Assembly (NCBI GenBank): GCA_021496505.1
Contig: CP053031.1
Location: forward strand, 3,092,001-3,156,000
Length of the DNA: 64,000 nt
Reading direction: 5' to 3'
Source: Thermoleophilia bacterium SCSIO 60948
GTDB taxonomy: Bacteria > Actinomycetota > Thermoleophilia > Solirubrobacterales > 70-9
The notes beneath the pieces were generated by a model. It searched no databases. It was not told the DNA's origin and saw only the letters and a program-made list of their open reading frames with translations. This document shows positions 21,863 to 47,462 of this stretch, in pieces (positions within the stretch are counted from its first letter, which is position 1; each line of letters opens with the position of its first letter). Position numbers and translations under genes: made by a program.

Positions 21863-21910
21863 TGCGCGGTACCGGGCTCGAACCAGTGACCCCCTGCTTG
21901 TAAGGCAGGT
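21863..21910 (-). tRNA. 3' half of a tRNA-Val(TAC) gene (attachment-site remnant)
   Basis: Reading minus strand: anticodon arm CCTGC-CTTACAA-GCAGG (anticodon TAC), variable loop, T-arm ACTGG-TTCGAGC-CCGGT and acceptor ACCGCGC with discriminator A are all intact. The 5' acceptor, D-arm and position-26 region are absent: upstream sequence (21911 onward) does not pair with the acceptor. A clean break within or just before the anticodon arm is what an integrase using a tRNA gene leaves behind. It is not expected to give a functional tRNA. Confidence 0.75.
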
Positions 21911-22111: not shown

Positions 22112-24042
22112 CTACTTCTCCCGCCAGCCTGGCGGAACCAGTTTGGTGCCGGAGTGCCAGTCTTCGACGAGTGCTTCGTCGAACCACGGCTCGCCGGCGA
22201 AAGTGGCATGGTCCGTGATGAGCACCTGGAGCGAGCCGCCCAAATCTTTGACGACCCGGTCGGCGAGCTGCATCATTGCTCGGACCGCCTCCCAATCCAC
22301 GTCCTTCATCGCCGCGTCGCGGTCGACGTTCTGCGGAAAGAACGGCAGGCTCGGCTGATCGAATACCACGAAGCGAGGAACGGGCCGCGCTTCCTGCACG
22401 AAGTGCCGATGCAAGGCCAAATGGGACACGAGGTGATAGCCGACGTGGTTAGCCCCCGAACCCATCCGAGCGAGGCCTATCCGTCCTCGTCCCGTGCCGA
22501 TCGCAACGTTGAGCGTTCGGCGGTCGATGTAGACGCTGCCTTCATTGGCGACTTCGAGCTCCAGCTGGCGAGCCCAGGCCGTCATGTCAACAGACATCGC
22601 CCCCAAACGCGCCTCTAGTTCGTCGTCGATTGTGTTGATCTCGCCGGTTGATTCGATCGCGGCGAGCTCCTCCGACACAGTCCGTACTCGGTCGGCTAGC
22701 TCCACGCGCGTTGCGGCACCTTCTGAACCCACCGTCCGCAGATACTCCTCGATTACTCCTAAGAGCCGCGCCCGGATCTGCCCGTCCTCCACCAGTCGCC
22801 TGGCGGCCGAGTCAGCAGCAAGAACGGCCTCCAACCGCTGGCGAGTGCGGTCGTAGTGGGCATCCGCAGCGACGATAGCTGCGTCGAGCTCGCGCTCGGC
22901 TGGTCCGATGTCACGCTTCGCCGAACTCATCGCCTGTAGCTGTGAGTCGAGTTGATTGACGTCTCGCGCCAGATCGGCGAGCGGACTATCGCGGTCCTCG
23001 AGTTGAGCACCGCACGCGGGACATGACGCCCAATCCCCACCGGCGTCGTCAAGATGATCGATCATGCCCAGACGTCCCAGCTGAGTACTGACGGCCGCCG
23101 CGTGTTCGCCGCGATCTCGATCGAGCTGGTCGAGCGCGGCTCGACGCTCCCTGAGCTCACGCGTCACGGCTCGCGCTCGCCGAGCTCTGAGCGGGCTTCG
23201 GCTAGTGGCGTCTCAACCTGATCGGTCTCGGACTCGCCGAGCGCGTCTGGAAGAGACTTCAGAAGGTCGGCCAGCACGACTCTCGGCTCTCCATCAGCAT
23301 CACTCGCCGGGATCAAGCCGCGTTCAACAGCCTCGCTGACCAACACGCTGTCCCGCGCTTGATCCCTCTCAAGGCGAGCATCCAACCGATCGAGCCGCCG
23401 CTTCGCGTCCGCAAGCCTTCTGCGAAGCCGTGCCGCTTCGCGTCGGGTCGCCACCATTCGCTCGTCGACCGCGCCGAGGAAGTAGGGAAACAGCTCTGCG
23501 AAATCGTCTGCGACAACATCTTCATCGCCGCGGTGAAACAGATGCTGAGGCGAGATCAGCTCCGTCTGAAACTGAAGGCAGAACTGGATCGCGTGGCTCA
23601 CCGACGCCCTGAGACGTTCGCGAGAGCCCCCGTTCTCTTCGACGTCGTAGCGGCCCAGGCCCAGCAGGTCGTCGAGAGCACCGCGGACAGTCCCCGCGGT
23701 GGCGTTGATCTCGATCGACGAGCTGTCCGGAGGCAAGTCGACCCCGCGGCCGTACGCGACCATCGCCGTCGATACGGAGGATCCTTGGGGCTGCGGGCGG
23801 ACTGCGAGAACTCGACGCCCATCCGCCGTTTGGAAGAGCGCGGCGAAGAACGCCACTTTGTTGGTAATCGGCCCGGGCGCCAGATTTGGGGTCTTTCGTC
23901 CGGCGCAGAAATCGATGATCTTGAGGAGTTCAGACTTGCCCGTCCGTGACAAGCCCGAGATGACATTCAGCGATCCCGCGCGAAAACGCAGCGAACGTAG
24001 CTCTCCGTCGTGGCTGTAGAGACCGATTGCTAGAAGCTGCAT
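22112..24042 (-). pseudogene. ABC-3C ATPase (DUF3732, SMC-like), broken by a -1 frame shift
   Basis: The N-terminal part (24042 to 23164) begins MQLLAIGLYSHDGELRSLRF and carries Walker A in ISGLSRTGKSELLKIIDFCAG. The C-terminal part (23167 to 22112) has coiled coil, a zinc-hook-like SCPACGAQL and a late GSGANHVGYHLVSHLALHR / FVVFDQPSLPFFPQNVD, the signature/Walker B region of SMC-like ATPases. Joined, they give about 643 aa, the size expected for DUF3732 ATPases of ABC-three-component systems. The first frame stops at TGA 23166-23164, and the second can begin at GTG 23167, overlapping it (GTGA). Either a lesion, a programmed -1 shift, or a split two-subunit ATPase. Confidence 0.8.
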
Positions 24043-24047
24043 TCTGC

Positions 24048-24554
24048 TTAGGGCCGCATCCCAAGAAGGGCCAAGACCGTTGCGGGCGGCCCCGACCGAG
24101 GCAACCAACGGCCAAGCCGTTCTGCCTTTGTCCAGCAGTCCCTCGCGTCGGCGCTTTTCGGCACGGGCGCTCGCGCCAGCGCTGGACCTTCTTCTATTCC
24201 AGCCGAAAGTAGCTCGATGAGCTGACAACGAATCCCGAATCTGAGGGCGCGACGGGTCACCGAGGCCAGGTGCGGAGCGCGCCAGCGCAGTTCAGCCCGC
24301 AACAACTGGTGATCATCCGCCCACTTAGCAAGGCGAGCGTTGACCCGAGGGAGCTCATCGCGTGTCGCTCCGTGCAAGACCATTGGCGCAACTAGATACG
24401 CCAAAGCGAGGGGGAGAGCCGCACCCTTCTCGTTCTAATGTCCCACGGCCGCTCGGCCGACGAGTGCGGCGACGAAGGCCGGGTTGAAGAGAGCACGCGC
24501 GTCCAACCCAAAGCGTGTGTGTGGGACCTCCATGAGCTCCGAGTCTGAGTTCAC
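24048..24554 (-). pseudogene. ABC-3C middle component with an in-frame amber codon
   Basis: Translation from GTG 24554 gives RALFNPAFVAALVGRAAVGH, then TAG (24437-24435), then NEKGAALPLALAYLVAPMVL through to LGRWLPRSGPPATVLALLGM and a normal stop at 24048. Both sides match the ABC-3C middle-component family (N-PAF/L at the start, L-P-LVLH, R-E-ALRFG, A--LGRW, P-T--ALLG-RP at the end), and the total of 168 codons is the family length. The GTG overlaps the effector stop (GTGA), and the end abuts the ATPase start. One base change would restore it, so it is a recent null allele, a sequencing error, or suppressed. Confidence 0.8.
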
Positions 24555-25591
24555 GACATCCCTCTTGCTCGGCGAAACATCTGGTCAGTGCTAGCGCCCG
24601 AGACCACTTTTTCTACCACGCGCTGCATGCGAGCTCGAAAGTCCGGGTGCCACCCTATGCGGCAGACATCGGCCATGCCGTTGAGCGTCCCAACGTGCAG
24701 AAACCGGTCTCTCCCATCCCGTAGCGGATTCAGAGAAGAAGCTTCCATCTCCCCGTAGAGCCGTTTGCCAGCTTCCGAGTGAGCCGGCTCCTCGATCGGA
24801 TCCTGCAGTTCGTCGAGCATCCGCAGCCACGCGTGATTCCATTCATCAAAGAGTCGGGCCTCCCATTCGGCGAGTTCCTCTGGCAGCAAGACTCCCTGCT
24901 CGAGCCACTGGGACCGCTGCGCATACGCGCGGTGGTAGTCACTCACGGCCAGCTGGACCCGTTCATCGTGCATCGCGATGAGCTCGAGTTGCCGTACGAA
25001 CGGGGCGTCGGCGTAGGCTCTGAGCAGAGTCTCGCTCAGCTCCTCGGCCAGCGCAGGGTCGGCCGCCGGCAAACGGCCGGTCCCGTACTCATCTCGAAGC
25101 CGAACCACTTCCTCGATTACCTCTGCCCTGGTCACTGCCCGACGCCGTCGCAACAGAAGGTCGACCGCCCGCCGCTCCCACCAGCCGACGAGCTTGTCCA
25201 AGCACTCTTCCGTGCCGACCGAAGGCAAAGCAAACGGACCAAGCGCTCGACGCAGTTCCGGGCGAAAGTTCCCTACACCGCTGGTCGAGTCCCGGACGTC
25301 GATCTTGGCTAGAAGAAGCTTCCGGTCTTTCGGGTCGGCCTCACGAAACCGCTCCCGAGACTCCGCGGTGCTCTTGGGTCCCGGATCCTCGGTCGCAACG
25401 TCAAGGAGTAGCCGCTCGGCGCTTTCGACATCGCGATCATCGCCGGCCCGGAGGAGCGCACTCGCAGTGCCCTCCGGAGCGATGTCGGTGGTCACCAGAA
25501 TCAGTTTGTTGATGTCGGGAAGGGTCCCGTCATCGATCCGATCCATCCAAACGTCGAGCGCAGACCACAATGGTCTGGCTCGGTCTGTCAG
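24551..25591 (-). pseudogene. ABC-3C effector C-terminal domain, N-terminus missing
   Basis: An open frame runs from just after TAG 25594-25592 (LTDRARPLWSALDVWMDRID) to 24551; the first usable start is TTG 25570. Recognisable ABC-3C CTD stretches are LILVTTDIAPEGTASALL, LVGWWERRAVDLLLRR, FVRQLELIAMHDERVQLAV, DYHRAYAQRSQWLEQG and the final CRIGWHPDFRARM. In intact relatives, an N-terminal effector (usually nuclease-like) precedes the L-TD---LW-TL-VW segment. Here a stop sits right before it, and no nuclease-like sequence was found in any frame upstream. First gene of the three-gene operon. Confidence 0.7.
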
Positions 25592-28449: not shown

Positions 28450-28918
28450 GCCAATTCCAGATTCCTCGGTCCCGTCGCTCTTGGTGACCCGACCGGTCCG
28501 GCGGTGATGCCGTGCGCCCCGACGGAAGCCGAACTTCCGCGAGCCGGGGGGACCCCGGGGCGCTATCGCGTGAAGACACTCCGCGGTGGGACTGAAGACC
28601 ACGCCGTGATCGCGATAGAGAACCTCGAAGCGATCGCGGCGGCGCCGCACTTGCCCCGGCGTCCGAAGCCAAAGGCCGAAGCCAGCCGGCCGGCTCGGGG
28701 TCAATTAGCCAGGAGGCGCATCGAAGGTCAGTCGCCACCCGCCAGAAATGGCCGTCCTCGTGAAGAAGTCCTGGCCGCCGGATCCCGTATCGGCTGCACC
28801 AGAAAGCCTCCGCGCCTGCTCGCACCGGCGTACTTGTCAAATCAACAAAAGCGGTATTTGCGAAAACTTCTTTTCAACCGCTTTCCGAGCTTGTGCAGGG
28901 TGGACAAGCAGCAGCAGA

Positions 28919-28959
28919 GCGAAGCTAGGCTTACCCCGTCGGGGGTAAGTCGGCTTCGC
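28919..28959. promoter_or_regulatory. Large two-part palindrome upstream of the island operon
   Basis: GCGAAGC (28919-28925) pairs with GCTTCGC (28953-28959), and inside it CTTACCCC (28930-28937) pairs with GGGGTAAG (28942-28949), leaving small internal and apical loops. The inner part, TTACCCC-GTCG-GGGGTAA, resembles CsoR/RcnR-type operators. It lies 110 bp before the first ORF of the rightward operon. Operator, recombination site or terminator are all possible; no T tract follows. Confidence 0.5.
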
Positions 28960-29069
28960 GCATGGCCTCTCGTTTCGGACAAGGCGGGGCGCTAACTCTG
29001 TAGACACTCGCCGAATTTTCTGCCCTGAGCAGGGTCTCCGGACGAAAACCGGTGGCAAGGTGCCGCGCC

Positions 29070-29489
29070 ATGGCACCTCGACACAAGCGCCCCGCCGTCC
29101 CTGTCACCCGCCGCGAGCGCAAGACCGTCCGCGCCGCCTACGAGATCGTGCGCCACTACGCGGAAGCGCACGGACTTGCCGCCACCGACGTCGAGACCGT
29201 CGCGCTCGCCGCGATCGTCGACCACGTATACGACGGCGACCTCAACGCGATGGTCCGAGCGGAGCTCCGCGCCGGCCATCGTCTCGCCTCGGGCACGGGC
29301 ACGTCGCAGATAGCCGGTCCGGCCCACGTCCCGGGACCATGCACTCGAGACCGTGCACCACGCGCGCGGCGCCGTCGTCCGCCGCCAAGCGCTGAGGCAG
29401 ACGGTGGTGAAGAAGGCCCGAGTCCGGCAACAACAACGACCCTCCGCATGTCCCGGCAGCCCGCCTCCGTGGAAGGCGAGCTGGCATGA
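29070..29489 (+). CDS. Small hypothetical protein, island operon gene 1
   Basis: 139 aa. The first 75 residues (MAPRHKRPAVPVTRRERKTV, then helical YEIVRHYAEAHGLAATDVETVALAAIVDHVY) look like a folded helical domain. The rest is Arg/Pro-rich and low complexity. ATG 29070 is chosen over an in-frame start 18 bp earlier. It overlaps the next gene by 4 bp (ATGA), so the two are coupled. No family recognised. Confidence 0.5.
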   Translation: MAPRHKRPAVPVTRRERKTVRAAYEIVRHYAEAHGLAATDVETVALAAIVDHVYDGDLNAMVRAELRAGHRLASGTGTSQIAGPAHVPGPCTRDRAPRARRRRPPPSAEADGGEEGPSPATTTTLRMSRQPASVEGELA

Positions 29490-30349
29490 GCGGTTCGACT
29501 TGCGCCATCTGTGGCCGGGACGATCTGCCCGTCGAGCTCTCACATGCGGACGGTCTTTACACCTGCCTCGACTGTCTCGGAGACCCCACAGAGATATCCA
29601 GAGAGAGATCCTCAGAGAAGCCCGGAGAGAAGTCAGCAGTTCCTCCGTCGGTGCCCCGACATCTCTCTGGGCCGATCCGTCGGCGCCAGGTTTCGCGGGT
29701 GGCCGGCAAGAACGTCGACGCGACCGCTCTGCGCGCGATGGCTCTCGGAGTTCGTCCACCGAAACAGGGTGCGGGTCCCTGTGTGCTTCCCGGCCACGCC
29801 GTACACCCGCACGCGTCGTGGCTGATTTACCTGGCGCACTGGGAGCTGTGGTGCCCGTGGGCCGACCGCTCATTCAGTCTCGCCGCCGTTCGTGCGGCGC
29901 TCGCGTATGACAGCGCCGCAGCGCCGCACGAGCGCGCGTCGGACCACTCGGCCTTCGAGCGCCTCTGGCTGCCGGGCGGCGTTGAGATCTCGCGCTGGGC
30001 CGAGTTTCTCGATTGGGAGATCGGCCTTCTCGAGCCCAGCGACGGAGCCTTCCTGCACGTGCCGGGCGACCTCTCGCTGACGGCTCGGCGCGTCGCCGAG
30101 TCGATCGAGCTCCTGCTTCGTCTTCGCAGCACCGAGCGCTGGCGGGATCGGGATCAGTTCACGTTCGCTCGCCGTTTCTGTCGTGCCGTCACCGGCCTGG
30201 CGGAGGATCGCGCCCGCGCTGGCGTCGATGAGCTCCGAACCATCGGAGTGATCGTCGCGGTTGACAGACAGGGCAAAGCGATTGTCTACCGGCCCGGCCC
30301 CCGGACCGACGGGCGTCAGATCCTTTCGATCGAGGATGGGCGAGCGTGA
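29486..30349 (+). CDS. Zinc-ribbon-containing hypothetical protein, island operon gene 2
   Basis: 287 aa. The N-terminus has C-A-I-C then, 18 residues on, C-L-D-C, a treble-clef or ribbon-like Zn site. A polar linker with GAGA-rich DNA (encoding TEISRERSSEKPGEKS) follows, then a helical region with Trp-rich SWLIYLAHWELWCPWADRSF and a C-terminal winged-helix-like end (ARAGVDELRTIGVIVAV). This is like phage/plasmid proteins that combine a Zn finger with a replication or HTH domain. No exact family. Overlaps its neighbours on both sides. Confidence 0.5.
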   Translation: MSGSTCAICGRDDLPVELSHADGLYTCLDCLGDPTEISRERSSEKPGEKSAVPPSVPRHLSGPIRRRQVSRVAGKNVDATALRAMALGVRPPKQGAGPCVLPGHAVHPHASWLIYLAHWELWCPWADRSFSLAAVRAALAYDSAAAPHERASDHSAFERLWLPGGVEISRWAEFLDWEIGLLEPSDGAFLHVPGDLSLTARRVAESIELLLRLRSTERWRDRDQFTFARRFCRAVTGLAEDRARAGVDELRTIGVIVAVDRQGKAIVYRPGPRTDGRQILSIEDGRA

Positions 30350-30678
30350 TGGCCCGGGCGAACACCCGCTTGGTTGATGCGTCCGAGCTCGCGTACCGGC
30401 TCGGTGTCAGCCGCTCTTGGGTCTACGAGCACGCCGACGAGCTCGGCGCAGTTCGCCTCGGAACAGGGTCGCGCCCCCGTCTGCGATTTGACCCTGCGAG
30501 AACCGTCGACCTGCTGGCCACCTGCTCTTCACGCAGGGGGTCGCGATCGCCGCCAAGTCGCTCTGAGAAGCCGGTTCCGAGCCACCGTCGCAAGCGAGGT
30601 TCGGGCACCACCGTAGATCTGCTGCCCATAAAGGGCTGCAACGACAGCCGTCAGCCGACGGCGGGAGAAAGTCTGTGA
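30349..30678 (+). CDS. Excisionase/AlpA-like HTH protein, island operon gene 3
   Basis: 109 aa. LVDASELAYRLGVSRSWVYEHADELGAV is a MerR/AlpA-like winged helix as in excisionases, followed by RPRLRFDPARTVDLL, the typical wing that ends this domain, and a basic low-complexity tail. ATG 30349 overlaps the previous TGA. In a tRNA-associated island beside an integrase, the natural reading is a recombination directionality factor or a small repressor. Confidence 0.65.
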   Translation: MARANTRLVDASELAYRLGVSRSWVYEHADELGAVRLGTGSRPRLRFDPARTVDLLATCSSRRGSRSPPSRSEKPVPSHRRKRGSGTTVDLLPIKGCNDSRQPTAGESL

Positions 30679-31400
30679 CCAGTAAGCCGCTCCATAAGGA
30701 TCCGTTCGATCGCCTAATCCAGACCCTGCAATGCCTGAGAGGCCGTCGCCTCGGCATTGAGCTCAGGTCGCTCGCCGCGGACACTTCGGTCGGGGTGCTG
30801 GCGGACGGCTGGATCCGAGAGCTCAACGAAGACCCGGCTGACGGACGGGCCTCGGACCAACGAATCGCTCGGGTCGATCTGGTGAACGCGTCAGACGAGC
30901 ACCTGATGGAGCTTGTCGTCTTCGAAGACATGCTGGACCACTTCGCCGGAAACGGCGACGGTTTTGATGCCGAACTCGCCGACGTTCAGGTGTCGGTCGT
31001 CGCGTACGCACGGAAGGACGGAGGGGAACCGGGCGACTCCTGGACCGGGCTACAGCAGCGTCAAGCGCTGGAGTTGCTGCAGGAGCAGGCCTGGACCGAG
31101 GTTGATGGGGATCTCCGTGTCGTCGAGACCGCTCTACGGCGTGCCCTCGACGCGACGACCCACGATCTCGACCGGTGGGAGAAGTCGGAAGTCCTGCCGG
31201 GGTGGAAGGACGAGTTCTCACTCTCGCCCGAGGAGGTTGCCCGGCTCGATCCGTATCGCCGTCTCGAGTACGTCGCTCGGCTGCTCGCCACGATCGAGAC
31301 GATGTACGGCCTGAAGGACTGGCCCTCCCGGAAGGATGGCGGACGGATCTCGGACATTCTTCGGGGCCTCAACGACATCAGTCTCGGCATTCGTCCATGA
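30675..31400 (+). CDS. Hypothetical protein, island operon gene 4
   Basis: 241 aa, acidic, no signal peptide or membrane helix. It is predominantly helical, with VVETALRRALDATTHDLDRW and LDPYRRLEYVARLLATIETMY as the best amphipathic stretches. It overlaps gene 3 by 4 bp. No recognised domain. 230 bp separate it from the integrase; that gap holds hairpins such as CCGGAG-ATCAAG-CTCCGG near 31540-31560. Confidence 0.5.
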   Translation: MTSKPLHKDPFDRLIQTLQCLRGRRLGIELRSLAADTSVGVLADGWIRELNEDPADGRASDQRIARVDLVNASDEHLMELVVFEDMLDHFAGNGDGFDAELADVQVSVVAYARKDGGEPGDSWTGLQQRQALELLQEQAWTEVDGDLRVVETALRRALDATTHDLDRWEKSEVLPGWKDEFSLSPEEVARLDPYRRLEYVARLLATIETMYGLKDWPSRKDGGRISDILRGLNDISLGIRP

Positions 31401-31632: not shown

Positions 31633-32841
31633 ATGTCACGACCAGCCACGGGTCAGGTCGTCGTTCGGGAGCGACGACGAGGAAAGGTCTATGCGCTTCG
31701 CTTTCGCGCCTACGGGAAGCGCCGCTACGTGACCCTGGGAGCGACTCCGGCGGGATGGACGCAGCGACTCGCCGAGGAAGAACTCGCGAACGTCTTGGCC
31801 GACGTCCGCCGCGGCATATGGCGACCGCCGGTAGCGGAGCCGGCGCCGGCAGCGCTTGCGGAGCCGAACTTCCACGAGTTTTCGAGCAGTTGGTACGCCC
31901 GGCGGGAGCTCGAGGGCCTCCGCCCGCGGAGCCTGGAGTACCTGAAGTGGGCGCTCTCCGACCACCTGCTTCCCCACCTGAAGGATCACCTTCTGAGCGA
32001 GATCACCATTCAGGAGGTCGACCGATATGCAGCGGCGAAGGTCGCCGAGGGACGTCTGTCACACGATTCGATCAACAAGACTCTGTCGGTACTGGCCAGC
32101 GTGCTCGAGCTTGCGGTCGAGTACGAGATCATCGTCTCGAACCCGGCGCGGGGCCGACGTCGCCGGTTGCCAGCGCAGGCTCCGCATCGAGCGTATTTGG
32201 AGCCGGGACAGGTGCTAGCGCTGCTCGATGCCGCGGCCGCGCTCGACTCTGAGGATCGCGCCAGGCGGCGGTATCGGGCGGCGGCGTTGGCGACGCTTGG
32301 CTTCGCCGGACTTCGTGTTGGAGAGTTGCTCGCCTTGAGGTGGCGGGACGTGGACCTCGCCAATGGTGCGATCCAGGTGCGCCAGTCAAAGACGTCAGCC
32401 GGGGTGAGACGAGTAGACATCCAGCCCGAGCTCAGGGAATACCTCGTTGTTTGGAAGGCTGAAACTGGGTTCGCCGGCAATGACGATCGCGTCTTTCCGA
32501 CCGGGACCGGCAACCCAGAGAACAGAAGCAACCTACGTCGACGCGTTCTGTTGCGGGCCGTAGCAAAGGCGAACGAGGCCCTGCCCGCTGGTGCCCCGGA
32601 ACGCCTTCCAGAGCGTCTCTCGCCCCACGTGCTCCGGCGGTCGTTCGCCTCGTTCCTCATCGCCGAGGGCGAAGACGTGGCATACGTGATGGGTCAGCTG
32701 GGTCACACCGACCCGAAAATGACTTTGGGTCTGTACGCGAAGGCGCTTCGCTCGAAACGGAGACGGTCGAGCTTCACTCTCGCCGAGGCCGCCGATGTCG
32801 AAGCGGTCGAACCGGGCTCGGCGGGGTCCGCGTTCGCGTGA
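31633..32841 (+). CDS. Tyrosine recombinase (phage-type integrase)
   Basis: 402 aa. AP2-like N-terminal DNA-binding region (VYALRFRAYGKRRYVTLG), SAM-like core-binding domain (about 85-165) and catalytic domain: Arg in GFAGLRVGELLALRW, His-x-x-Arg in LSPHVLRRSFASF, second His in QLGHTDPKMT and nucleophile Tyr in LGLYAKAL. All needed residues are present, so it should be active. GGGAGG lies five bases before ATG. It sits at the right edge next to a tRNA-like remnant, consistent with tRNA-targeted integration. Confidence 0.9.
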   Translation: MSRPATGQVVVRERRRGKVYALRFRAYGKRRYVTLGATPAGWTQRLAEEELANVLADVRRGIWRPPVAEPAPAALAEPNFHEFSSSWYARRELEGLRPRSLEYLKWALSDHLLPHLKDHLLSEITIQEVDRYAAAKVAEGRLSHDSINKTLSVLASVLELAVEYEIIVSNPARGRRRRLPAQAPHRAYLEPGQVLALLDAAAALDSEDRARRRYRAAALATLGFAGLRVGELLALRWRDVDLANGAIQVRQSKTSAGVRRVDIQPELREYLVVWKAETGFAGNDDRVFPTGTGNPENRSNLRRRVLLRAVAKANEALPAGAPERLPERLSPHVLRRSFASFLIAEGEDVAYVMGQLGHTDPKMTLGLYAKALRSKRRRSSFTLAEAADVEAVEPGSAGSAFA

Positions 32842-32920: not shown

Positions 32921-32957
32921 CGCGCGGATACTCGAACCAGGACCTACTACGCCGCGA
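32921..32957 (-). repeat. Shrunken tRNA-like remnant, possible attachment site
   Basis: The minus strand reads CGCGGCGTAGTAGG, then TCCTGGTTCGAGTATCCGCG: a 5' acceptor-like start with TAG, joined directly to a T-arm-like CTGGTTCGAG (10 bp identical to the tRNA-Val fragment at 21863) and a CCGCGC acceptor end. The anticodon arm is missing. It lies 80 bp after the integrase stop. Weak, but it is where an att site is expected. Confidence 0.35.
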
Positions 32958-32986: not shown

Positions 32987-33208
32987 CTATCGCGCTCGAC
33001 CGATGAGTTCATAACCGGCTTCTTCGACCGCTTGCCGTACCTGTTCGTCGGTGTAGCCGCTCCCCGCTACTTCGACCCGTCCTGTCGGCAGGTCGACCCG
33101 GACTTCGGTGACCGGGTCCAGACTCTCGATCCTCTCGCTCACCGACGTGGCGCAGTGACTGCAACTCATACCCTTGACGGTGTAGGTGGCAATGGCTCGT
33201 CTACTCAT
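32987..33208 (-). CDS. copZ: CopZ-like heavy-metal-associated domain chaperone
   Basis: 73 aa. A single HMA domain with TVKGMSCSHCATSVSERIES (C-x2-C copper site) and the usual beta-alpha-beta pattern through AVEEAGYELIG. It carries Cu(I) in the cytoplasm. ATG 33208 has GAGGAGA eight bases upstream. It follows the DUF4396 gene by 60 bp in the same direction, downstream of a CsoR-like operator, so it is probably copper-induced. No CopA ATPase lies nearby. Confidence 0.9.
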   Translation of the reverse strand: MSRRAIATYTVKGMSCSHCATSVSERIESLDPVTEVRVDLPTGRVEVAGSGYTDEQVRQAVEEAGYELIGRAR

Positions 33209-33268
33209 TTGCACCGTCTCCTCGACGTCCTTCGACTGCCTGACTGCTTACGATCCGGAGCGGTCGGG

Positions 33269-33862
33269 TCACCCGAAGACTTCGATGATCAAGACCGACG
33301 AGCCGAAAACGAACGCCAAGGCCGTGATCGCGCCGACCAGCTTGGGCGGCAGCCCGCCGTGGATCCCGGTCTCGTGCACGGCTGTGTGACCTTTGCCTCG
33401 CCTGATCAGCCACATGTTCACCGGCACAGTGACGATAAACGCGATGGCGAGGGCGAAAGACAGCGCGCCCCAGAACAGAATGTCGCCAAGGCCGGAATCC
33501 ATCGCCCCGGGAATCACGACCATGATCAAGTTGTCGATGATCTCCATCGTGGCGATCGAGAGGGTGTCCGCAGCCAGAGCCACCGGAACAACGGCCGACA
33601 GCGCCATGCCGGCACGAAGGAGAGGCAGGCTGGTCAGGAGGTATCCGAAGAAGAAGGCCAACGCGACTGCCAGGGCAACGGTGGCAAGGTCTGAGAAACC
33701 CAGCGCGGTGCCGATCGCCATACCCGAGACCTCGCCAATGGCACAACCCGTGAGGCAGTGCAGGGTCGCGCTGACGGCGACCCCTCTGAGCGCGCTCCCA
33801 TGTGTTGGCATCTCGTGGCGGACCTGGTGGCCGACGTGTTGACCCTGGCGACCCGCCTCCAC
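33269..33862 (-). CDS. DUF4396 membrane protein
   Basis: About 197 aa, five membrane helices. SATLHCLTGCAIGEVSGMAIG is the DUF4396 hallmark with two Cys and a His that could bind metal. ATMEIIDNLIMVVIPGAM and FIVTVPVNMWLIRRGKGHT complete the domain. GTG 33862 is taken because GGAGGA lies four bases ahead; GTG 33880 is possible. First gene after the CsoR-like site, and co-transcribed with copZ. Probably linked to copper handling, function unproven. Confidence 0.75.
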   Translation of the reverse strand: MEAGRQGQHVGHQVRHEMPTHGSALRGVAVSATLHCLTGCAIGEVSGMAIGTALGFSDLATVALAVALAFFFGYLLTSLPLLRAGMALSAVVPVALAADTLSIATMEIIDNLIMVVIPGAMDSGLGDILFWGALSFALAIAFIVTVPVNMWLIRRGKGHTAVHETGIHGGLPPKLVGAITALAFVFGSSVLIIEVFG

Positions 33863-33882
33863 AATTCCTCCGTGCGTCACAA

Positions 33883-33899
33883 TTACCCTCCGGGGGTAT
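33883..33899. promoter_or_regulatory. CsoR-type operator
   Basis: TTACCCTCCGGGGGTAT: TACCC and GGGTA arms around a G/C centre, almost the same as the Bacillus subtilis copZA operator recognised by CsoR. It lies just upstream of the DUF4396-copZ unit and 90 bp before the divergent DUF4396-like gene, so it may serve both. No csoR gene is in the window. Confidence 0.65.
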
Positions 33900-33990
33900 C
33901 GTAACGACTGCCCGGACTAGGAGCGGGGACGGGCAATTCCCTACGATCTCATCGCAGTAGCGCACGGCGACCCGAGGGATACGAAGGATC

Positions 33991-34689
33991 ATGGAAGACA
34001 TGGGGGCCGGGCTGCCGGCTTGGCTCACAACGTTGTCATGGATCTACATCGCCGTAGCTCTCGCGAGCGCCGCGGCGATCCTCTACGACATTCGCCGTCG
34101 CAAGTCTCCTTCGTCCCGCCGAGGGATGGAGGCCGTGTGGCCGCTCGCGGCGTTGTACCTCGGGCCGCTGGCCTTTCCGGTCTACAGGCGCTTCGGACGC
34201 GAGGCCGGCTCCGTCCGCGAGCCTGACGGCATCTCAGCAGACGAGCCCGCAACCTCCTCCGCGGTTCACTCGGGCCTGTTCGGAGGCGTCTCATCGGGCT
34301 TGGCGCACATCGTGGCCGTGCCCTTCGTGGTAGCAACGGGCCTGACGATTGCGAACATGGATATGTGGGCGATGGTCGTGATCATCGCGTTGCTCGCCGC
34401 CGTCAGCATCTTCTTGTTCGAGTACGTGTCCTCCGCCTCTGCCAACCGCGGGGTCCCCGGTCTCATCCGAGTGCGCTCGGCGCTCGTGGTCGCGGCCCTC
34501 ACCGTCGCTGCTTTCGACCTCGGAATGCTCAGCTGGATGCTGATCCTCCACTACACGGAGAACATGCCGGCGGCCGGCGACGTGCGCTTCACCTTCCTCA
34601 TGCAGATAGGGCTCATCCTCGGAACGTTGACTGTCTACCCCGCCGCGCGCTGGCTCGTGGGCCGTGGCCGGAGGGCGCCGGCCAGCTGA
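33991..34689 (+). CDS. Second DUF4396-like membrane protein
   Basis: 232 aa. The N-terminal LPAWLTTLSWIYIAVALASA and VWPLAALYLGPLAFPVYRRFG, and the C-terminal MQIGLILGTLTVYPAARWLV, match long DUF4396 proteins. The Cys/His motif of the centre (HC--GC in the neighbour) is lost and replaced by GVSSGLAHIVAVPF. About six membrane helices. It faces the short DUF4396-copZ operon across the CsoR-like site. A paralogue that has lost its presumed metal site. Confidence 0.6.
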   Translation: MEDMGAGLPAWLTTLSWIYIAVALASAAAILYDIRRRKSPSSRRGMEAVWPLAALYLGPLAFPVYRRFGREAGSVREPDGISADEPATSSAVHSGLFGGVSSGLAHIVAVPFVVATGLTIANMDMWAMVVIIALLAAVSIFLFEYVSSASANRGVPGLIRVRSALVVAALTVAAFDLGMLSWMLILHYTENMPAAGDVRFTFLMQIGLILGTLTVYPAARWLVGRGRRAPAS

Positions 34690-35060
34690 TACGTGCATCC
34701 GGGGTCGGTGCCTAGGGCGCCGTGAAGTCGCGTCCTGTCCCCTACCGCCTCGTGCGCGTGGCGAGGCATGCTCTTCGCCGCTTTCGCTCCAGAGGGGGCT
34801 GAGCACGATCCGGCGTGCGATCGCCGGAGCGCCGATAGAGGAGCCGGGGCCTCCCCCACACCGACGGCCTGGGACAGGCGGCAAGTCCGCGACTCACCCA
34901 GTGGGGGGTGGGCGCAGACCATTCGCGGATTGGTCCCCCAAGGGTCGGTAGCTCCCCCTTCTCGCCTCGAGGCCCGGCAGGCCGGAGCCTGATACTACGC
35001 ATTGTAGGATGTGGGGATGCTTGCCTTTGGCCCCTGCTTCAATCGCACCGGCACAAGCGC
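34690..35060. other. Intergenic region with palindrome A
   Basis: 370 bp without a recognisable gene; frames on both strands are Arg/Pro-rich. It ends with the palindrome at 34994-35008 in front of the acetyltransferase gene. Confidence 0.5.
34994..35008. promoter_or_regulatory. Palindrome A (BlaI-like operator candidate)
   Basis: ACTACG-CAT-TGTAGG, 52 bp before the GNAT start. With its flanks, TACTACGCATTGTAGGA resembles BlaI/MecI operators (TAC/GTA core). It is the most divergent of four matching sites in the window (others at 39216, 41239, 42561). Confidence 0.5.
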
Positions 35061-35969
35061 ATGAGCTTCGCCCTCGGCGACGGCAGCCGTAGTCGCCTTC
35101 GAGGCGAACTGCCAGTTCGCGCCGTGGTCGTCGGTACGGCCCTCGGCGCGGCGGCCTTGACTTTCGCTTTGCATCATCTTCCGCCGCTTGCCGGCCACGC
35201 TCTCGAGGCGATCGCACTGGCGCTCGGGATCGTTGGGCTGAGCGCGATGATCGCGGCCCGACTCTGGGCCACCCCCAGCGCTGCCGTCGAAGACGTTGTC
35301 GTGATCGAAGCGACGGCAACGAACTCGCTGCGCTGCGCGACGCCGGCCGATGTTGATTTCATGGCCCGCCTGCACGCGGAGACCCTGCCGCAGGCGTTCT
35401 TCGTCTCCCTGGGGCAGAAGTTCATGCGCCGTTACTACGCGACCTTCATCGAGTCGCCCTACGCCGAGGCGCTCGTCGCTGCGGTCTCCGACCACCGAGC
35501 CGGGATGATCGTCGGCGTGCTCGATCCGCCCCTGCATGTCCGTTGGATCGCGCGCAACCGTGCGATAGCGCTGGCGCTCTCGGCGCTGTCGGCGCTCGTC
35601 GTTCGGCCCGCGGCGGCATCCATGTTTCTCAGGACCCGCGCCCGCCGCTATGCGGGCGCCTGGCGTCGTCACCGTCGAAGCCGCAGCGCGCAGGCCCCGG
35701 CGACCGACGGAGCCATCCGCCCGGCGGTCCTGAGTCACGTGTCGGTTCCTTCGGGCGCGAGACACCGTGGGATTGGACAGAGCCTGGTGTGCGGCTTCGA
35801 GACGAGCGCTTGGAGCTACGGAGCTGACTGGATCACGCTGACCACCCTCGCGGGTTCCGATGGCGCAAGCGACTTCTACGAGTCGCTGGGTTGGCGATAC
35901 CGCGGTCCAGTCCACACATTCGACGGGACCCGAGTTGTCGAGTGGTCGATCGCGCGGAGCGCGCGGTGA
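35061..35969 (+). CDS. GNAT-type acetyltransferase with N-terminal membrane helices
   Basis: 302 aa. Two hydrophobic stretches (residues 20-70), then a GNAT fold: LRCATPADVDFMARLHAETL at the start, acetyl-CoA loop region VPSGARHRGIGQSLVCGFE (R-G-x-G-x-x-L) and ITLTTLAGSDGASDFYESLGWRY at the end. Substrate unknown; the membrane anchor suggests a lipid, wall precursor or membrane protein. ATG 35061 is chosen over an upstream frame extension. It overlaps the next gene by 4 bp (GTGA). Confidence 0.7.
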   Translation: MSFALGDGSRSRLRGELPVRAVVVGTALGAAALTFALHHLPPLAGHALEAIALALGIVGLSAMIAARLWATPSAAVEDVVVIEATATNSLRCATPADVDFMARLHAETLPQAFFVSLGQKFMRRYYATFIESPYAEALVAAVSDHRAGMIVGVLDPPLHVRWIARNRAIALALSALSALVVRPAAASMFLRTRARRYAGAWRRHRRSRSAQAPATDGAIRPAVLSHVSVPSGARHRGIGQSLVCGFETSAWSYGADWITLTTLAGSDGASDFYESLGWRYRGPVHTFDGTRVVEWSIARSAR

Positions 35970-36940
35970 AGCGCCGCGCCACGCTTCTCGCCTTATGTCT
36001 CATCGCTGTTCTGGCGGGTTTGGTCGGTGCCCTGGCCAGCGAGGGCCCGGACCCGCCGTCGCCGCAGTCGGTCCTCGCCGAGGTCGAGCGGACCGCGGAC
36101 GTGCCCGACCGCAGGCCATCGCCCGACCCCTACACGTCGCCGCGCTACGAGCCGTACGCGGATGGCAAGAAGGTCGCCGCCCGCGCCGCCCAGCGCGCCC
36201 TCACCTACAGTCGAAACGAGATGCCGGCGGCGATCGCCGAGCGCGTTCGGGCTCGGGTCGACGACGGTCTCGCCCGGGTGCTTGCGCCTGCGATCGAACG
36301 TGACGTGCGTTCAGCCGGGACCGTGGTCTACCCGCAGCTCTCCGGTCTGACCGAGAGCTCGATGGGCGTCATGGTGGTGGCTCGTCAACGATTGCAGGAT
36401 GCGGCCGGCCGGTGGACCTCTGTGACACGCACGGTCGATGTCCGCTTGACCGGCGTCGACGGCGCCTGGCAGGTCGAGTCGATCTCATCGGTCGGCGGAC
36501 CGCCTGCGAGACGGCCCGACGAGCTGTCGGTGGCCGCGACAGCCGTCGTCGACAACCCTGCTATCGAACTACCGGACACCGCGCGATGGGACATCTATCG
36601 CGGCTTGGTGGATCCGACGTTGCTCGAGGCAATGGCCTCCGCCGCCGAGCGGGCGCCGATCGCGGTTGCGGTTCTTGACTCGGGCCATCCGACGAATGTC
36701 TGGGCGACGTCCACGCCCAGCGCTCATTCCAGCGGAGCGGCGGTCGACATATGGGCCGTCGACGGAACGCCCGTTGCAGAGCAGGTTGAAACTGGCAGCG
36801 CGGCGTACGAAATGGCTTCGGCCTTCGTCTCCGGTGGGGCGGCTCAGGTCGGAAGTCCGTGGGTGCTAGGACCCGGGGGGGCGACGTCGTTCACCGATGA
36901 GGTCCACCGCGATCACGTCCATCTGCAGCAGTCGGGCTGA
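35966..36940 (+). CDS. Secreted M15-like peptidase domain protein
   Basis: 324 aa from GTG 35966. Signal anchor at residues 8-25, an unknown middle domain, and a C-terminal M15/VanY-type core: STPSAHSSGAAVDIWAVDG (H-x3-G-x-A-x-D, Zn His and Asp) and FTDEVHRDHVHLQQSG (H-x2-H-x-H). Zn-dependent D,D- or L,D-carboxypeptidase activity on peptidoglycan is the expected role. Coupled to the GNAT gene by overlap. Part of a run of wall-related genes up to 41.2 kb. Confidence 0.75.
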   Translation: MKRRATLLALCLIAVLAGLVGALASEGPDPPSPQSVLAEVERTADVPDRRPSPDPYTSPRYEPYADGKKVAARAAQRALTYSRNEMPAAIAERVRARVDDGLARVLAPAIERDVRSAGTVVYPQLSGLTESSMGVMVVARQRLQDAAGRWTSVTRTVDVRLTGVDGAWQVESISSVGGPPARRPDELSVAATAVVDNPAIELPDTARWDIYRGLVDPTLLEAMASAAERAPIAVAVLDSGHPTNVWATSTPSAHSSGAAVDIWAVDGTPVAEQVETGSAAYEMASAFVSGGAAQVGSPWVLGPGGATSFTDEVHRDHVHLQQSG

Positions 36941-36976
36941 GCCCCGTCGCCGCCGTCGCACGAAGCCGAAGGCCAG

Positions 36977-37576
36977 CTACATCCGAAATCGCGCGAAGTA
37001 GCCGAAGGGGGTACCGAGGCGGCGGTCGTAGCTCATCCCACTCGCCTCCGCGCGCTCGATCAACCGTCTCGGCCGTACCCAGTGCGGGTCACCGAAGAGC
37101 TCTCCGACGACCAGCCTCCCGCCAGGACGAACCACGCGGGCGAGCTCACGAAGCGCCCGTTCCTGGTCGGGGACCTCGCCGAGCACCGCCACTAGGAAGG
37201 CGGCGTCGAAGCGGTTCGTTTCGAACGGCAGCTCGAGAGCATCACCGACGGTGGCAGCCACGTTGTCGATGCCAGCCGAGGCCAGGCGTGCCACCGTGTG
37301 CTTCAGCATCTCGTTCTGCTGATCGAGCAGCTCGAGGCATCCCGGCGGTCCAAGGGCCTCAGCGACTTCGCCCGAATAGTGGCCCGTACCGGGTCCAACC
37401 TCGAGGATCCGTTCACCGCGCTTCGGCTCGAGGACCCTGCGGAGCCGAGCGCGTGTGATCAGTGGGTGGGGTGGCCGCAACCAGAAGCGCTGTCCGTAGG
37501 GGCAGGCGGAGGGATGGCGTCGCCACCACAGCGCGGCGGCCAGGATGCCGAGCGTCGCGGCGGCGGCCACCTGCAT
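36977..37576 (-). CDS. Class I SAM-dependent methyltransferase
   Basis: 199 aa from ATG 37576 (MQVAAAATLGILAAALWW, an N-terminal membrane helix). The MT core follows: RILEVGPGTGHYSGEVAEAL (SAM motif I), CLELLDQQNEML, VGDALELPFETNRFDAAFLV (motif II) and LARVVRPGGRLVVGE. It is of the type often annotated as methylase in menaquinone biosynthesis. It ends in FGYFARFRM. The start was placed after the stop of the M23 gene (37645), so both could share a transcript. Confidence 0.75.
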   Translation of the reverse strand: MQVAAAATLGILAAALWWRRHPSACPYGQRFWLRPPHPLITRARLRRVLEPKRGERILEVGPGTGHYSGEVAEALGPPGCLELLDQQNEMLKHTVARLASAGIDNVAATVGDALELPFETNRFDAAFLVAVLGEVPDQERALRELARVVRPGGRLVVGELFGDPHWVRPRRLIERAEASGMSYDRRLGTPFGYFARFRM

Positions 37577-37644
37577 GGACGCCGGCGTGAAGGCGCGCAA
37601 TCGAGTCGTTGGACGCCTCGTACCGAGCTCGACCCCGGAAGGCT

Positions 37645-38205
37645 TCAATTGGCTCGATCCCAGCGTCGCAGGCGAGGCGTCGGGTCTATCGCACGCCCGC
37701 CCTTGTACCAGCCGGGACCGGACCAAATCTCGAAGTGCAGGTGACAAGCGGTTGAGCTTCCGCTTGAACCGACGAGCCCGATCGGCTCTCCAGCGCGGAC
37801 ACGCTCGCCCTTGCGAACTTCCAGCCGTTTGCGCATGTGCATGTAGACGGTCTCGAGGCGTGTGTCGCTGCCGCTGATCACGACGAAGTTCCCGGCCCCG
37901 CCGGCCTCGTAGTCGACGACTCGAACCCGCCCACTCTGCGACGCGACAACCTTCTTCCGGCAGTCAGCAAGCAGGTCCTGACCCCTGTGGCCACGACCGG
38001 CGCCGAACCCGTCCCCATATGTGTGCTTCCCTCGGACCGGAAAACTGTTCTCTCCGTCCGATCCTCCCCCACCGCTGCCGACCCCTCCGCCGCCCGCTCC
38101 AGTGCTCGTCCCCGGAATCAGGAGGAATCCGACCAGTAGCAGGCCGATTAGCTTGATAGCTCCGATCCGTGGGCTCTGGATCGCATGCGCCCGCGATTTC
38201 GACAT
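37645..38205 (-). CDS. M23 family metallopeptidase (c-di-AMP riboswitch controlled)
   Basis: 186 aa. Signal peptide (residues 12-36, ending STGAG), Gly-rich linker, then a compact LytM domain: FGAGRGHRGQDLLADC (Zn H-x3-D), VYMHMRKRLEVRKGERVRAG and ACHLHFEIWSGPGWY (H-x-H). All Zn ligands are present. It should cleave peptidoglycan cross-links outside the membrane. GGAG lies five bases before ATG. Its leader carries a c-di-AMP riboswitch, and the whole unit is duplicated at 55257-55965. Confidence 0.85.
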   Translation of the reverse strand: MSKSRAHAIQSPRIGAIKLIGLLLVGFLLIPGTSTGAGGGGVGSGGGGSDGENSFPVRGKHTYGDGFGAGRGHRGQDLLADCRKKVVASQSGRVRVVDYEAGGAGNFVVISGSDTRLETVYMHMRKRLEVRKGERVRAGEPIGLVGSSGSSTACHLHFEIWSGPGWYKGGRAIDPTPRLRRWDRAN

Positions 38206-38227
38206 CGCTGCTCCGCCTCTCTTCTCG

Positions 38228-38345
38228 AGCCTGCGGAGTTAGCTGACGGGCTCGCGCATGTCGAAGAGGTCGCGCTAGGGATACGTAGGCATCCCATTCG
38301 CCCCGGAACGATTGGTTCCTCCGCTCCGCCGCCTCGGACGGCGGA
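38228..38345 (-). ncRNA. c-di-AMP (ydaO/yuaA) riboswitch 1
   Basis: In the leader of the M23 gene, minus strand: AGGAACCAATCGTTCCGGGG, then CGAATGG, a hairpin GGGATGCCTACGTATCCC, then CGCGAGCCCGTCAGCTAAC and CTCCGCAGGC. The blocks GGAACC-N-GGGGCGAAT and GAGCCCGtCAGCTAAC are the conserved cores of the ydaO motif. Such switches usually turn off wall hydrolase genes at high c-di-AMP. Limits are approximate. Confidence 0.85.
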
Positions 38346-38367
38346 TTCGGCTATGGCGCGGCGCAGC

Positions 38368-39207
38368 TTAGCGCGATCTCCGACGGACCGTCGGATCACC
38401 TGGTGGGGCGCGGTCTTCTCGGGGGCGTCGACCGCGGAAAAGCCCCAAAGCGAGAAGACTCGTCGCTATGAGTAGGACACTGATCCACTGGGTCGCGCTC
38501 AGGCCAACCGCCAACTCGGCGCTGTCGGAGCGGACGAAGAACATCGCGAAGCGACCGCTCGCGTAGAGGCCAACGACGGTCGCCGCAAAGGACCCCGGCT
38601 GGTTGAGCCGAGATTTGAGCGGCCAAATGATGCACAGGATCAGGAGCGCGAGGAGAATCTCATAGAGCCCTCCTGAGTGATAGGCGATCGCGGCGTCAGG
38701 CACCGACGCGTCCGGATGAGAGTTGCGCACGGCCCATGGAAGTTGAGACGGAGGGCCGAAGTGCTCGCCATTGATCAAATCTCCGACGCGGCCGATCGCC
38801 ATGCCGAGCGGCAGGCCGAGCGCAGCGGCGTCGAGGTAACCGAGGCTCAGGTTTCGGCGCCTGATCACCAGGACGATCGCGACGGCCCCGGCAATCAGGC
38901 CGCCGTAGACCGAGAACCCACCTGTGCCGAGCCAGTCTGCCGGACTCAGCAGCGCCCCAGCGTCGTTCTCGAGTAGGTACAAGAGCCTCGCACCGACCAA
39001 GCCGGCCAGCGCGGCCACTACGGCGAGCGTCAGGATTTCCTCGGGATCAAGCTCGAGGCGTTTTGCGCGCCATGCTGCGAGGAGGCTGCCGGCGACTATG
39101 CCGAGCGAGGTCGTGATCCCATGCCACGAAAGCGAGATCGGCCCGAGGTCGATGAATGGATCGATGCTGATTGTTATCTGCGCAAGGGAGGGAATGCTTC
39201 GGAGAAT
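38368..39207 (-). CDS. lgt: Prolipoprotein diacylglyceryl transferase homologue, likely ATT start
   Basis: About 279 aa, seven membrane helices. ISIDPFIDLGPISLSWHGI at the N-terminus, ALAGLVGARLLYLLEN, and the Lgt signature LGMAIGRVGDLINGEHFG. Transfers diacylglycerol from phosphatidylglycerol to prolipoprotein Cys. No ATG, GTG, TTG or CTG occurs in frame between the stop at 39234 and GTG 39018, which would cut off the family's first helix. ATT 39207 has a perfect GGAGG five bases upstream and gives a full-length protein. Palindrome B overlaps this ribosome site. Confidence 0.75.
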   Translation of the reverse strand: MLRSIPSLAQITISIDPFIDLGPISLSWHGITTSLGIVAGSLLAAWRAKRLELDPEEILTLAVVAALAGLVGARLLYLLENDAGALLSPADWLGTGGFSVYGGLIAGAVAIVLVIRRRNLSLGYLDAAALGLPLGMAIGRVGDLINGEHFGPPSQLPWAVRNSHPDASVPDAAIAYHSGGLYEILLALLILCIIWPLKSRLNQPGSFAATVVGLYASGRFAMFFVRSDSAELAVGLSATQWISVLLIATSLLALGLFRGRRPREDRAPPGDPTVRRRSR

Positions 39208-39215
39208 AGGAGCCT

Positions 39216-39230
39216 CCGACGCAACGTAGG
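39216..39230. promoter_or_regulatory. Palindrome B
   Basis: CCGACG-CAA-CGTAGG, between the divergent lgt and cyclase-YHS genes, touching the GGAGG of lgt. It matches the 6-3-6 pattern of the sites at 34994, 41239 and 42561 with one arm position changed. Confidence 0.5.
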
Positions 39231-39291
39231 ACTAAGGTGCCCTGATTCCCGCCCCCAGAAGAACATCGTCACGGCGGTCGGCGAGATTCCG

Positions 39292-41215: not shown

Positions 41216-41238
41216 GGCGGGGGACCCTAGGAAGAAGT

Positions 41239-41253
41239 CTTACGATTCGTAGG
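41239..41253. promoter_or_regulatory. Palindrome C
   Basis: CTTACG-ATT-CGTAGG, 24 bp before the M23 coiled-coil gene (minus) and 27 bp before the divergent membrane protein gene. Nearly identical to palindrome D (CCTACG-ATA-CGTAGG). It probably controls one or both of the diverging units. Confidence 0.55.
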
Positions 41254-41279
41254 ATCAATGAGGTGACCCGCAATCGAGT

Positions 41280-41732: not shown

Positions 41733-41805
41733 GCCGAGAGCCGTGACCTAGGCGCTTCGGCGCCACGAGCACACCCACACTCTCAGCGAGAGAAAGGACC
41801 CCAGC

Positions 41806-42405: not shown

Positions 42406-42560
42406 GCTACTCGGCTCACCGGTCCCGGCGCTGAGCTCGATCGGACCTGGCCCCGCTCGGTCCCGGATGACTTTCCGGGGCCGGGTCGGTGCCGGGGGTG
42501 GGCGGATCTTCGACCCAGGGCTGACAGCGGCCATCGGCCGCCCCATGCGCTGCGGCTTAC

Positions 42561-42575
42561 CCTACGATACGTAGG
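42561..42575. promoter_or_regulatory. Palindrome D
   Basis: CCTACG-ATA-CGTAGG, perfect 6-bp arms, ending two bases before ATG 42578, so a bound protein would block the start of the small membrane gene. Best copy of the four-site motif. Confidence 0.55.
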
Positions 42576-42577
42576 AG

Positions 42578-42796: not shown

Positions 42797-42902
42797 GCGA
42801 CACCACCACGGGCCACGCAACGGTACGAGCGGTCCACTGTGCTGAGCTGTCGGCCGTCTGGTCCGACGGCGGGCTGTGCCGCTTACGTCACGGTTCGCTC
42901 AG

Positions 42903-45665: not shown

Positions 45666-45764
45666 TCGTGCCCGCCCAACTAAGTCACTCTTCGCGCACC
45701 GGAGCCTTGAACTTGCGCCGCTTGGCGGTCCTCACGTCGGGCATGCCGAGCCTACTCTTACAAG

Positions 45765-47452: not shown

Positions 47453-47462
47453 CTGACGGCCC

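What the first reader, a model, noticed from the sequence alone, without database searches (positions are those of the whole stretch)
29070..31400. Four-gene unrecognised operon feeding into the integrase
Genes overlap by 1-4 bp: a small helical protein, a Zn-ribbon protein with winged-helix-like end, an AlpA/excisionase-like HTH and an acidic helical protein. No named families except the HTH. This could be the replication/excision core of a poorly described actinobacterial element.
Basis: partly seen in the sequence, partly recalled or inferred. Interest (0 to 1): 0.5.

Follow-up and report, generated by a model that had tools for sequence, protein, structure and literature searches.

The report
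Stripped replication–excision module in tRNA island
Four small overlapping genes next to an integrase look like the control module of a mobile DNA island inserted at a valine tRNA gene of an actinobacterium; one gene is the DNA-binding half of a known primase-polymerase whose catalytic half is missing.

Summary
The four ORFs exist as described, overlapping by 4 bp each, 232 bp before a tyrosine integrase (Int). ORF3 belongs to an AlpA/excisionase-like family found upstream of 21 of 38 related integrases. ORF2 matches the C-terminal zinc-finger plus winged-helix half of Prim-Pol primases; four of its five relatives carry the Prim-Pol domain, which ORF2 lacks and a search of its whole genome did not find. 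ORF4 ends in a domain shared with three small proteins elsewhere in this chromosome; ORF1 stays an orphan. Related integrases abut a tRNA gene in 20 of 39 loci; one (L059) has all the AICE modules sought: FtsK-like Tra, RepSA, ORF3 family, Int, tRNA-Val repeat. The operon lies in a 42.3-kb island bounded by a tRNA-Val(TAC) 3'-half repeat (46/47 identical; right copy just outside the window), with an apparently broken Lamassu system and metal/redox genes. But Int lies 31 kb from that tRNA, so the island may be composite. Best reading: integration/excision plus a catalysis-free initiator/regulator module of an AICE-like integrative element, probably stranded or helper-dependent. New variant of a known kind. 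All functions are inferred; nothing was shown to move.

The parts
21863..21909 (-). left attachment-site repeat: 3' half of tRNA-Val(TAC); partner is the intact tRNA-Val at window-equivalent 64151-64223, outside the window
   Evidence: Rfam RF00005 30.4 bits; genome match; intact tRNA; 46 of 47 identical, then 9 of 26
22115..25570 (-). Lamassu (LmuA/LmuB) defence genes, LmuB split over reading frames (apparently broken)
   Evidence: PADLOC LmuB 4.9e-44 and 1.9e-15 in two ORFs, LmuA 1.5e-33; DUF3732 and CTD7
28786..28985 (.). AT-rich, hairpin-bearing stretch upstream of ORF1: candidate promoter/operator or origin (weak)
   Evidence: 28786-28931 ties for lowest GC of 576 windows (0.55); 28840-28985 folds at z -4.16 with bounds I chose, but 28859-29004 only -2.3 in the unselected scan
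29070..29489 (+). ORF1, 139 aa, orphan
   Evidence: frame best of six; no families; no accepted relatives
29486..30349 (+). ORF2, 287 aa: CxxC/CxxC ribbon + CHC2-like zinc finger + winged helix; matches the C-terminal half of Prim-Pol primases, without the catalytic domain
   Evidence: phmmer 8e-10 to L082; a profile of three Prim-Pol fusions, built without ORF2, matches at positions 211-377 of 418, 9e-12; model
30346..30678 (+). ORF3, 110 aa, AlpA/excisionase-like HTH with C-terminal LLPIK
   Evidence: alignment A10 of 13 members; phrog_66; family upstream of 21 of 38 related integrases
30675..31400 (+). ORF4, 241 aa; residues 130-213 match three small proteins elsewhere in the same genome
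   Evidence: profile of the three paralogs alone finds ORF4 at 4e-9
31633..32841 (+). Int, tyrosine recombinase, 402 aa
   Evidence: Phage_integrase 79.9 bits; tree of 40
32922..32944 (-). possible decayed tRNA 3'-end remnant 80 bp after Int (weak)
   Evidence: score 28 to the tRNA-Val half, reached by 9 of 2000 shuffles; 6 of 11 other tRNA halves score 28 or more there too; equal or higher scores elsewhere in the window
32987..64000 (.). metal/redox and other cargo of the island (HMA, DUF4396, DUF305, P-type ATPase + ArsR, LGT, MerR and others)
   Evidence: a selection of the genes; homologues downstream of the related integrases in L088 and L089

Best explanation
ORF1-ORF4 and Int are the integration/excision and replication-control module of an AICE-like integrative element of Solirubrobacterales (order inferred from named relatives). 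Int, by its family, recombines the element with half of a tRNA gene, here most likely tRNA-Val(TAC), giving a 42.3-kb island. ORF3 is its AlpA/Xis-type partner: it binds att or promoter DNA, sets the direction of recombination and probably regulates the operon. ORF2 is the DNA-binding half (zinc finger + winged helix) of a Prim-Pol-type primase/initiator from which the catalytic domain has been lost and a short Zn-ribbon stands in its place; it most likely binds the element's origin or operator, perhaps the AT-rich stretch upstream of ORF1, so any replication after excision must use host or helper enzymes. ORF1 and ORF4 are co-translated accessory proteins of unknown role. Shown here: operon, homologies, tRNA repeat, missing catalytic domain. 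Inferred: every activity.
For: L082 has the order Prim-Pol/Zn/wH - ORF3 family - Int - tRNA-Val. Three intact Prim-Pol fusions, L082, L112, L114 (57.8, 60.6, 82.8 bits), and L113 in two overlapping frames (by my own profile) carry the ORF2-like half. No PF09250 match in the genome. ORF3-family gene within 4 kb upstream of 21 of 38 related integrases. Integrase 3' end within 60 nt of, or overlapping, a tRNA in 20 of 39 loci; exact 38-44-nt half-tRNA repeats in 8 of these 20. Island repeat and GC step 0.705/0.662/0.709; no other relative of Int on the island. L060, the nearest integrase by path length in the tree, sits at a tRNA-Val(TAC) with a 44-nt repeat. L059: FtsK-like Tra, RepSA 455 bits, ORF3-family frame 12 bp before Int, tRNA-Val with a 44-nt repeat.
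Against: Int lies 31.3 kb from the intact tRNA-Val, whereas in 20 of 39 related loci it abuts the tRNA, so Int may not have made the outer repeat. In Int's smallest well-supported clade (10 rows) the 8 other integrases with an abutting tRNA use Gln, Asp, Gly, Arg or Met, none Val; L060 lies outside it. The four-gene set is not conserved in the loci examined. No functional data; ORF2's model is usable only in the winged helix (mean pLDDT 52.4). The search for an empty site through the left-flank gene was uninformative. 12 of 20 tRNA-abutting loci showed no repeat.
Confidence: 0.6

Rival explanations
1. Composite island: a smaller element (Lamassu, ORF1-4, Int, right end near 32.9 kb) entered the tRNA first, and the metal/redox segment accreted later between Int and the tRNA by another route.
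For: Related integrases often sit at the tRNA (20 of 39); a weak tRNA-like remnant lies 80 bp after Int (score 28; 9 of 2000 shuffles).
Against: No second relative of Int is on the island; the remnant is not specific for tRNA-Val (6 of 11 other tRNA halves score as well) nor exceptional in the window, as 58 kb scores 30 and the tRNA-Asp region 37; two related loci (L088, L089) also have homologues of the cargo downstream of their Int.
Confidence: 0.4
2. The operon is a decaying remnant: the Prim-Pol domain was deleted and nothing in it still works.
For: No catalytic replication gene or FtsK-like Tra on the island by the tests made; the neighbouring LmuB is split over frames; ORF2's zinc-finger ligands look partly lost.
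Against: All four frames and Int are open with tight 4-bp overlaps; coding scores are positive for ORF1, ORF2 and ORF4; ORF3 keeps the HTH and the C-terminal LLPI motif of its family; a stand-alone wH relative exists elsewhere (L115).
Confidence: 0.3
3. It is a phage satellite (PICI-like: int, AlpA, primase remnant, defence cargo) mobilised by a helper phage.
For: Sister loci with the same integrase family carry HK97-type capsid genes (L015, L062) or a terminase plus D5 primase (L076); int, alpA and pri are the essential genes of Gram-negative PICIs (passages of PMC10111431); a defence system is present.
Against: Capsid and terminase proteins of sister loci find nothing among 645 island frames (single-sequence test); the cargo is largely metal/redox, 42 kb is long for such satellites (recalled), and L059 shows the same integrase family in a conjugative-type element.
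Confidence: 0.2

Closest known systems
AICEs (pSAM2-type actinomycete integrative and conjugative elements)
   Same: tyrosine integrase with an excisionase-like gene, tRNA 3'-half repeat, Prim-Pol-related gene; sister L059 has Tra, RepSA, the ORF3 family and Int at a tRNA-Val
   Different: no Prim-Pol domain in the genome; no RepSA, DUF3631 or FtsK-like Tra found on the island by single-sequence tests; Int is internal
Prim-Pol (PF09250) primases of integrative elements and phages
   Same: C-terminal zinc finger + winged helix homologous to ORF2
   Different: ORF2 lacks the catalytic domain and has an extra N-terminal CxxC/CxxC ribbon
PICI/P4-like phage satellites
   Same: integrase, AlpA-like regulator, primase-derived gene, defence cargo; capsid-bearing sister loci
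   Different: no capsid or terminase gene found; largely metal/redox cargo
AlpA/Xis excisionases (HTH_17, TIGR01764, phrog_66)
   Same: HTH, size and position before int
   Different: ORF3 falls below the curated thresholds; 5 of 13 aligned members, ORF3 included, share a C-terminal LLPI(R/K) motif

Membership tests
AICE | site-specific recombinase acting at a tRNA 3' end | tested here: inconclusive
   46/47 tRNA-Val repeat bounds the island, but Int is 31 kb from the tRNA
AICE | Prim-Pol (PF09250) replication gene | tested here: not met
   no PF09250 match at E<=0.001 in the genome; only ORF2's frame answers a Prim-Pol protein, through the non-catalytic half
AICE | RepSA or RepAM (DUF3631) initiator | tested here: inconclusive
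   sister RepSA, DUF3631 and AAA_25 proteins find nothing among 645 island frames; the family profiles were not run over the whole island
AICE | FtsK/SpoIIIE-type Tra | tested here: inconclusive
   the FtsK-like Tra of L059 finds nothing among 645 island frames at E<=1; PF01580 itself was not run
Prim-Pol primase | catalytic domain PF09250 | tested here: not met
Prim-Pol primase | homologous C-terminal Zn finger + winged helix | tested here: met
AlpA/Xis excisionase | AlpA/HTH_17-type HTH above the curated threshold | tested here: not met
   ORF3: HTH_17 13 bits against 27, TIGR01764 15.7 against 28.8; 2 of 13 family members match HTH_17 at E<=0.01
AlpA/Xis excisionase | directionality factor for its integrase | not testable with these tools
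   position and PHROG match only
Phage satellite (PICI/P4-like) | capsid, packaging or helper-interference genes | tested here: inconclusive
   no match to sister capsid or terminase proteins; distant homologues could be missed

The most novel reading that the evidence does not exclude
A domain-swapped, catalysis-free initiator: the element kept the origin-recognition half of a Prim-Pol primase, put a Zn-ribbon where the polymerase was, and lets the host or a helper replicate the excised circle under the control of ORF2 and ORF3.
Probability: 0.25. Interest if true: 0.5.

Novelty: new variant of a known kind. Interest (0 to 1): 0.4.

Why it matters
The loci outline a tRNA-associated integrase/AlpA-like backbone in this class of actinobacteria that exchanges replication modules (RepSA, DUF3631, AAA_25, Prim-Pol) and goes with conjugation, capsid or metal/defence cargo. 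Here a primase has been cut down to its DNA-binding half: a testable case of how integrative elements become dependent on others. In the listings no title or abstract start described mobile elements of this class; the papers themselves were not opened.

Tried and rejected
Direct searches for ORF2 gave nothing accepted: viral contigs, phages, plasmids, genome contigs, 60 relatives. 396 phylum genomes (19) gave 6 weak hits besides the window (2.4e-4 to 0.0087), rejected because they lie in frames or genes that do not read like ORF2. In one search the sixth genome (G245, 8.6e-5) was dropped because the hit falls in a 1206-aa frame where my caller reads a large ATPase-like protein. 346 phylum genomes with a five-row profile gave only the window. 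These genome searches score only the best candidates per genome. L082's primase found no viral relative, and in phages and plasmids only matches to its Prim-Pol half. ORF3 and ORF4 found nothing in viral contigs or phages, ORF4 nothing in plasmids, ORF1 nothing in viral contigs. Int found nothing in phages or plasmids at 1e-10.

Fold comparison of ORF2 tested mainly the winged helix: no Foldseek match at 1e-3 (96); VIA ranks entries titled initiator/Rep first (4pql Z 7.7, 4pt7 7.2, 5kbj 7.1) but tied with unrelated winged helices at 6.9 (97), so a lead only. ORF4's model is too poor to use (mean pLDDT 42.6). Solved-structure profile searches for ORF2 and ORF3 gave only weak matches (best 0.32 and 0.048), taken as chance. 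Promoter and terminator scans were at chance level (80). A repeat search inside 20-36 kb gave no att pair (59); Int's 3' flank gave no convincing second copy in the genome (58). ORF1 has two weak own-genome matches (0.024, 0.079), taken as chance.

The hairpin stretch before ORF1 was first folded with bounds I chose (79); an unselected scan gave -2.3 there and stronger values elsewhere, among them 28421-28712 (-3.1 to -3.6) (100), so I make no origin claim. The 868-aa protein of L088 matched no Pfam family at 1e-3 and no solved structure at 0.01 (104, 126). Nine rows were not fetched with flanks and are not in the counts.

Full report
What is there. Four + strand ORFs overlap by 4 bp each and end 232 bp before a tyrosine integrase. 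Over the whole ORF, each one's own frame scores best of six in a hexamer model trained on this genome, though the score is negative for ORF3. The genome is a single 3.42-Mb contig. The 27 loci with a related integrase are mostly titled Solirubrobacterales or Solirubrobacteraceae, with Thermoleophilaceae, Conexibacter, Gaiellasilicea and unplaced Actinomycetota records; that the window's genome is of this order, class Thermoleophilia, is inferred.

Integrase. Int is a Phage_integrase (79.9 bits). 249 class genomes (21 with a match at 1e-40, own included; 24 of the 33 listed rows were fetched with flanks), genome contigs (27 loci) and viral contigs (1 locus) gave, after merging duplicates, 41 distinct relatives at 1e-40. 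Of 39 with at least 150 nt downstream, 20 have a tRNA gene overlapping or within 60 nt of the integrase 3' end. Of these 20, 8 show an exact 38-44-nt repeat of half the tRNA 3.8-11.1 kb away (L058, L059, L060, L061, L062, L067, L076, L084); 12 do not, some because little upstream sequence is held. In 6 of the 8 the repeat runs from the anticodon region to the tRNA 3' end; in L058 and L067 it is the 5' half.

Island. Rfam finds a tRNA 3' half with a degenerate 5' half at 21863-21924 (-). Its best partner in the genome is an intact tRNA-Val(TAC) at window-equivalent 64151-64223, 151 bases past the window end. The two are identical in 46 of 47 positions and then in 9 of 26. GC is 0.705 left of it, 0.662 inside, 0.709 to the right. 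The island is therefore 42.3 kb. Int is the only place on it found with Int as query at 1e-5, but it sits 31.3 kb from the tRNA; whether Int made this island or an inner, smaller element is open. A tRNA-like stretch 80 bp after Int scores 28 (9 of 2000 shuffles), but 6 of 11 other tRNA halves score as well there and other stretches of the window score as high or higher. In L088 and L089, homologues of several metal/redox genes of the island lie downstream of the related integrase. The empty-site test with the left-flank MpsC gene failed: of 30 loci scanned, one had any tRNA, a tRNA-Thr.

ORF3. One pass of phmmer and an iterated search that may drift find an ORF3 family. By the iterated search a member lies within 4 kb upstream of 21 of 38 integrases with at least 1.5 kb upstream. 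Thirteen members align through the HTH (LVDAxELA...VYxHAxELGA...RPRLRFD), and 5 of 13, ORF3 among them, have a C-terminal LLPI(R/K) motif. ORF3 is below the curated cut-offs for HTH_17 and TIGR01764 and matches phrog_66, excisionase and transcriptional regulator, at 3e-4. An excisionase/regulator role is inferred.

ORF2. Single-sequence searches gave nothing accepted, but the gene directly before the ORF3-family gene and Int in L082 matches it (phmmer 8e-10). That protein has an N-terminal Prim-Pol domain (PF09250, 57.8 bits). A two-row profile then found L112 and L114 (Prim-Pol 60.6 and 82.8 bits), L113 and L115 among 299 class genomes, plus one hit dropped as chance. A profile of the three intact fusions, built without ORF2, matches ORF2 at 9e-12 over positions 211-377 of 418, i.e. 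just after the catalytic domain; it finds L113 in two overlapping frames (Prim-Pol part and wH part) and L115 as a winged helix without the rest. An HK97-type capsid gene lies 3.8 kb downstream of L115's gene on the same strand. The Zn finger (C-x4-H ... C-x2-C in L114) is CHC2-like (name recalled) and only partly kept in ORF2. AlphaFold gives a winged helix at about 191-270 (block pLDDT 62-89), 60-67 over the first 30 residues and low confidence between. The genome has no PF09250 match, so the catalytic half is missing, not displaced.

ORF4 and ORF1. Residues 130-213 of ORF4 match three 121-122-aa proteins elsewhere in this genome; a profile of those three alone finds ORF4 at 4e-9 with the search space set to 3000. 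No other frame of the 10,413 in the loci searched matches at E<=1. ORF1 has no accepted relatives.

Known relatives. [quoted passage not shown] L059 shows all of these modules. The window's island fails the Prim-Pol test, and RepSA, DUF3631 and Tra proteins of sister loci find nothing on it (single-sequence tests), so it is not filed as an AICE; it works like the integration/excision part of one. Other sisters carry HK97-type capsid genes (L015, in this same genome; L062) or a terminase and D5 primase (L076), which recalls the capsid-forming PICIs described in passages read of PMC10690885. So one integrase family, often with an ORF3-like gene, serves conjugative-type and satellite-type loci in this class.

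Verdict. In the listings (titles and abstract starts) no paper described such elements in Thermoleophilia; the library is limited and most of those papers were not opened.

Noticed in passing
window 22115-25570 (-): Lamassu LmuA/LmuB genes (DUF3732, CTD7) inside the island, with LmuB split over reading frames.
   Followed up: partly
L015 (own genome 1609000-1623000): Second locus of this integrase family in the same genome: HK97-type capsid, Xre, AAA_25, ORF3 family, Int overlapping a tRNA-Arg; no left repeat found within 7.7 kb.
   Followed up: partly
L062 and L076: 9.6- and 10.5-kb stretches between 44-nt tRNA-Gly repeats, one with capsid and a Toprim/AAA_25 protein, one with terminase and D5 primase: candidate phage satellites.
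   Followed up: partly
L065: The small-gene and integrase set upstream of a tRNA-Val appears twice in tandem, the first integrase shorter (rows, where the locus heading was cut from the output).
   Followed up: no
L012 6649-7017, L013 7054-7422, L014 7783-8148: Three small uncharacterised proteins share a domain with ORF4; two stand beside similar RidA-like genes (name recalled), suggesting a chromosomal duplication.
   Followed up: partly
L016, L074, L075/L094, L088, L089, L096, L097: Sister loci share a 650-880-aa protein (weakly in L074; L088's copy has no Pfam match) upstream of the integrase; most also have a DNA-methylase-like gene (by eye, DPPY motif) and an ORF3-family gene.
   Followed up: no
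window 21468-21833: An MpsC-domain gene ends 30 bp before the left att repeat; the genome has six matches to it, itself included.
   Followed up: partly
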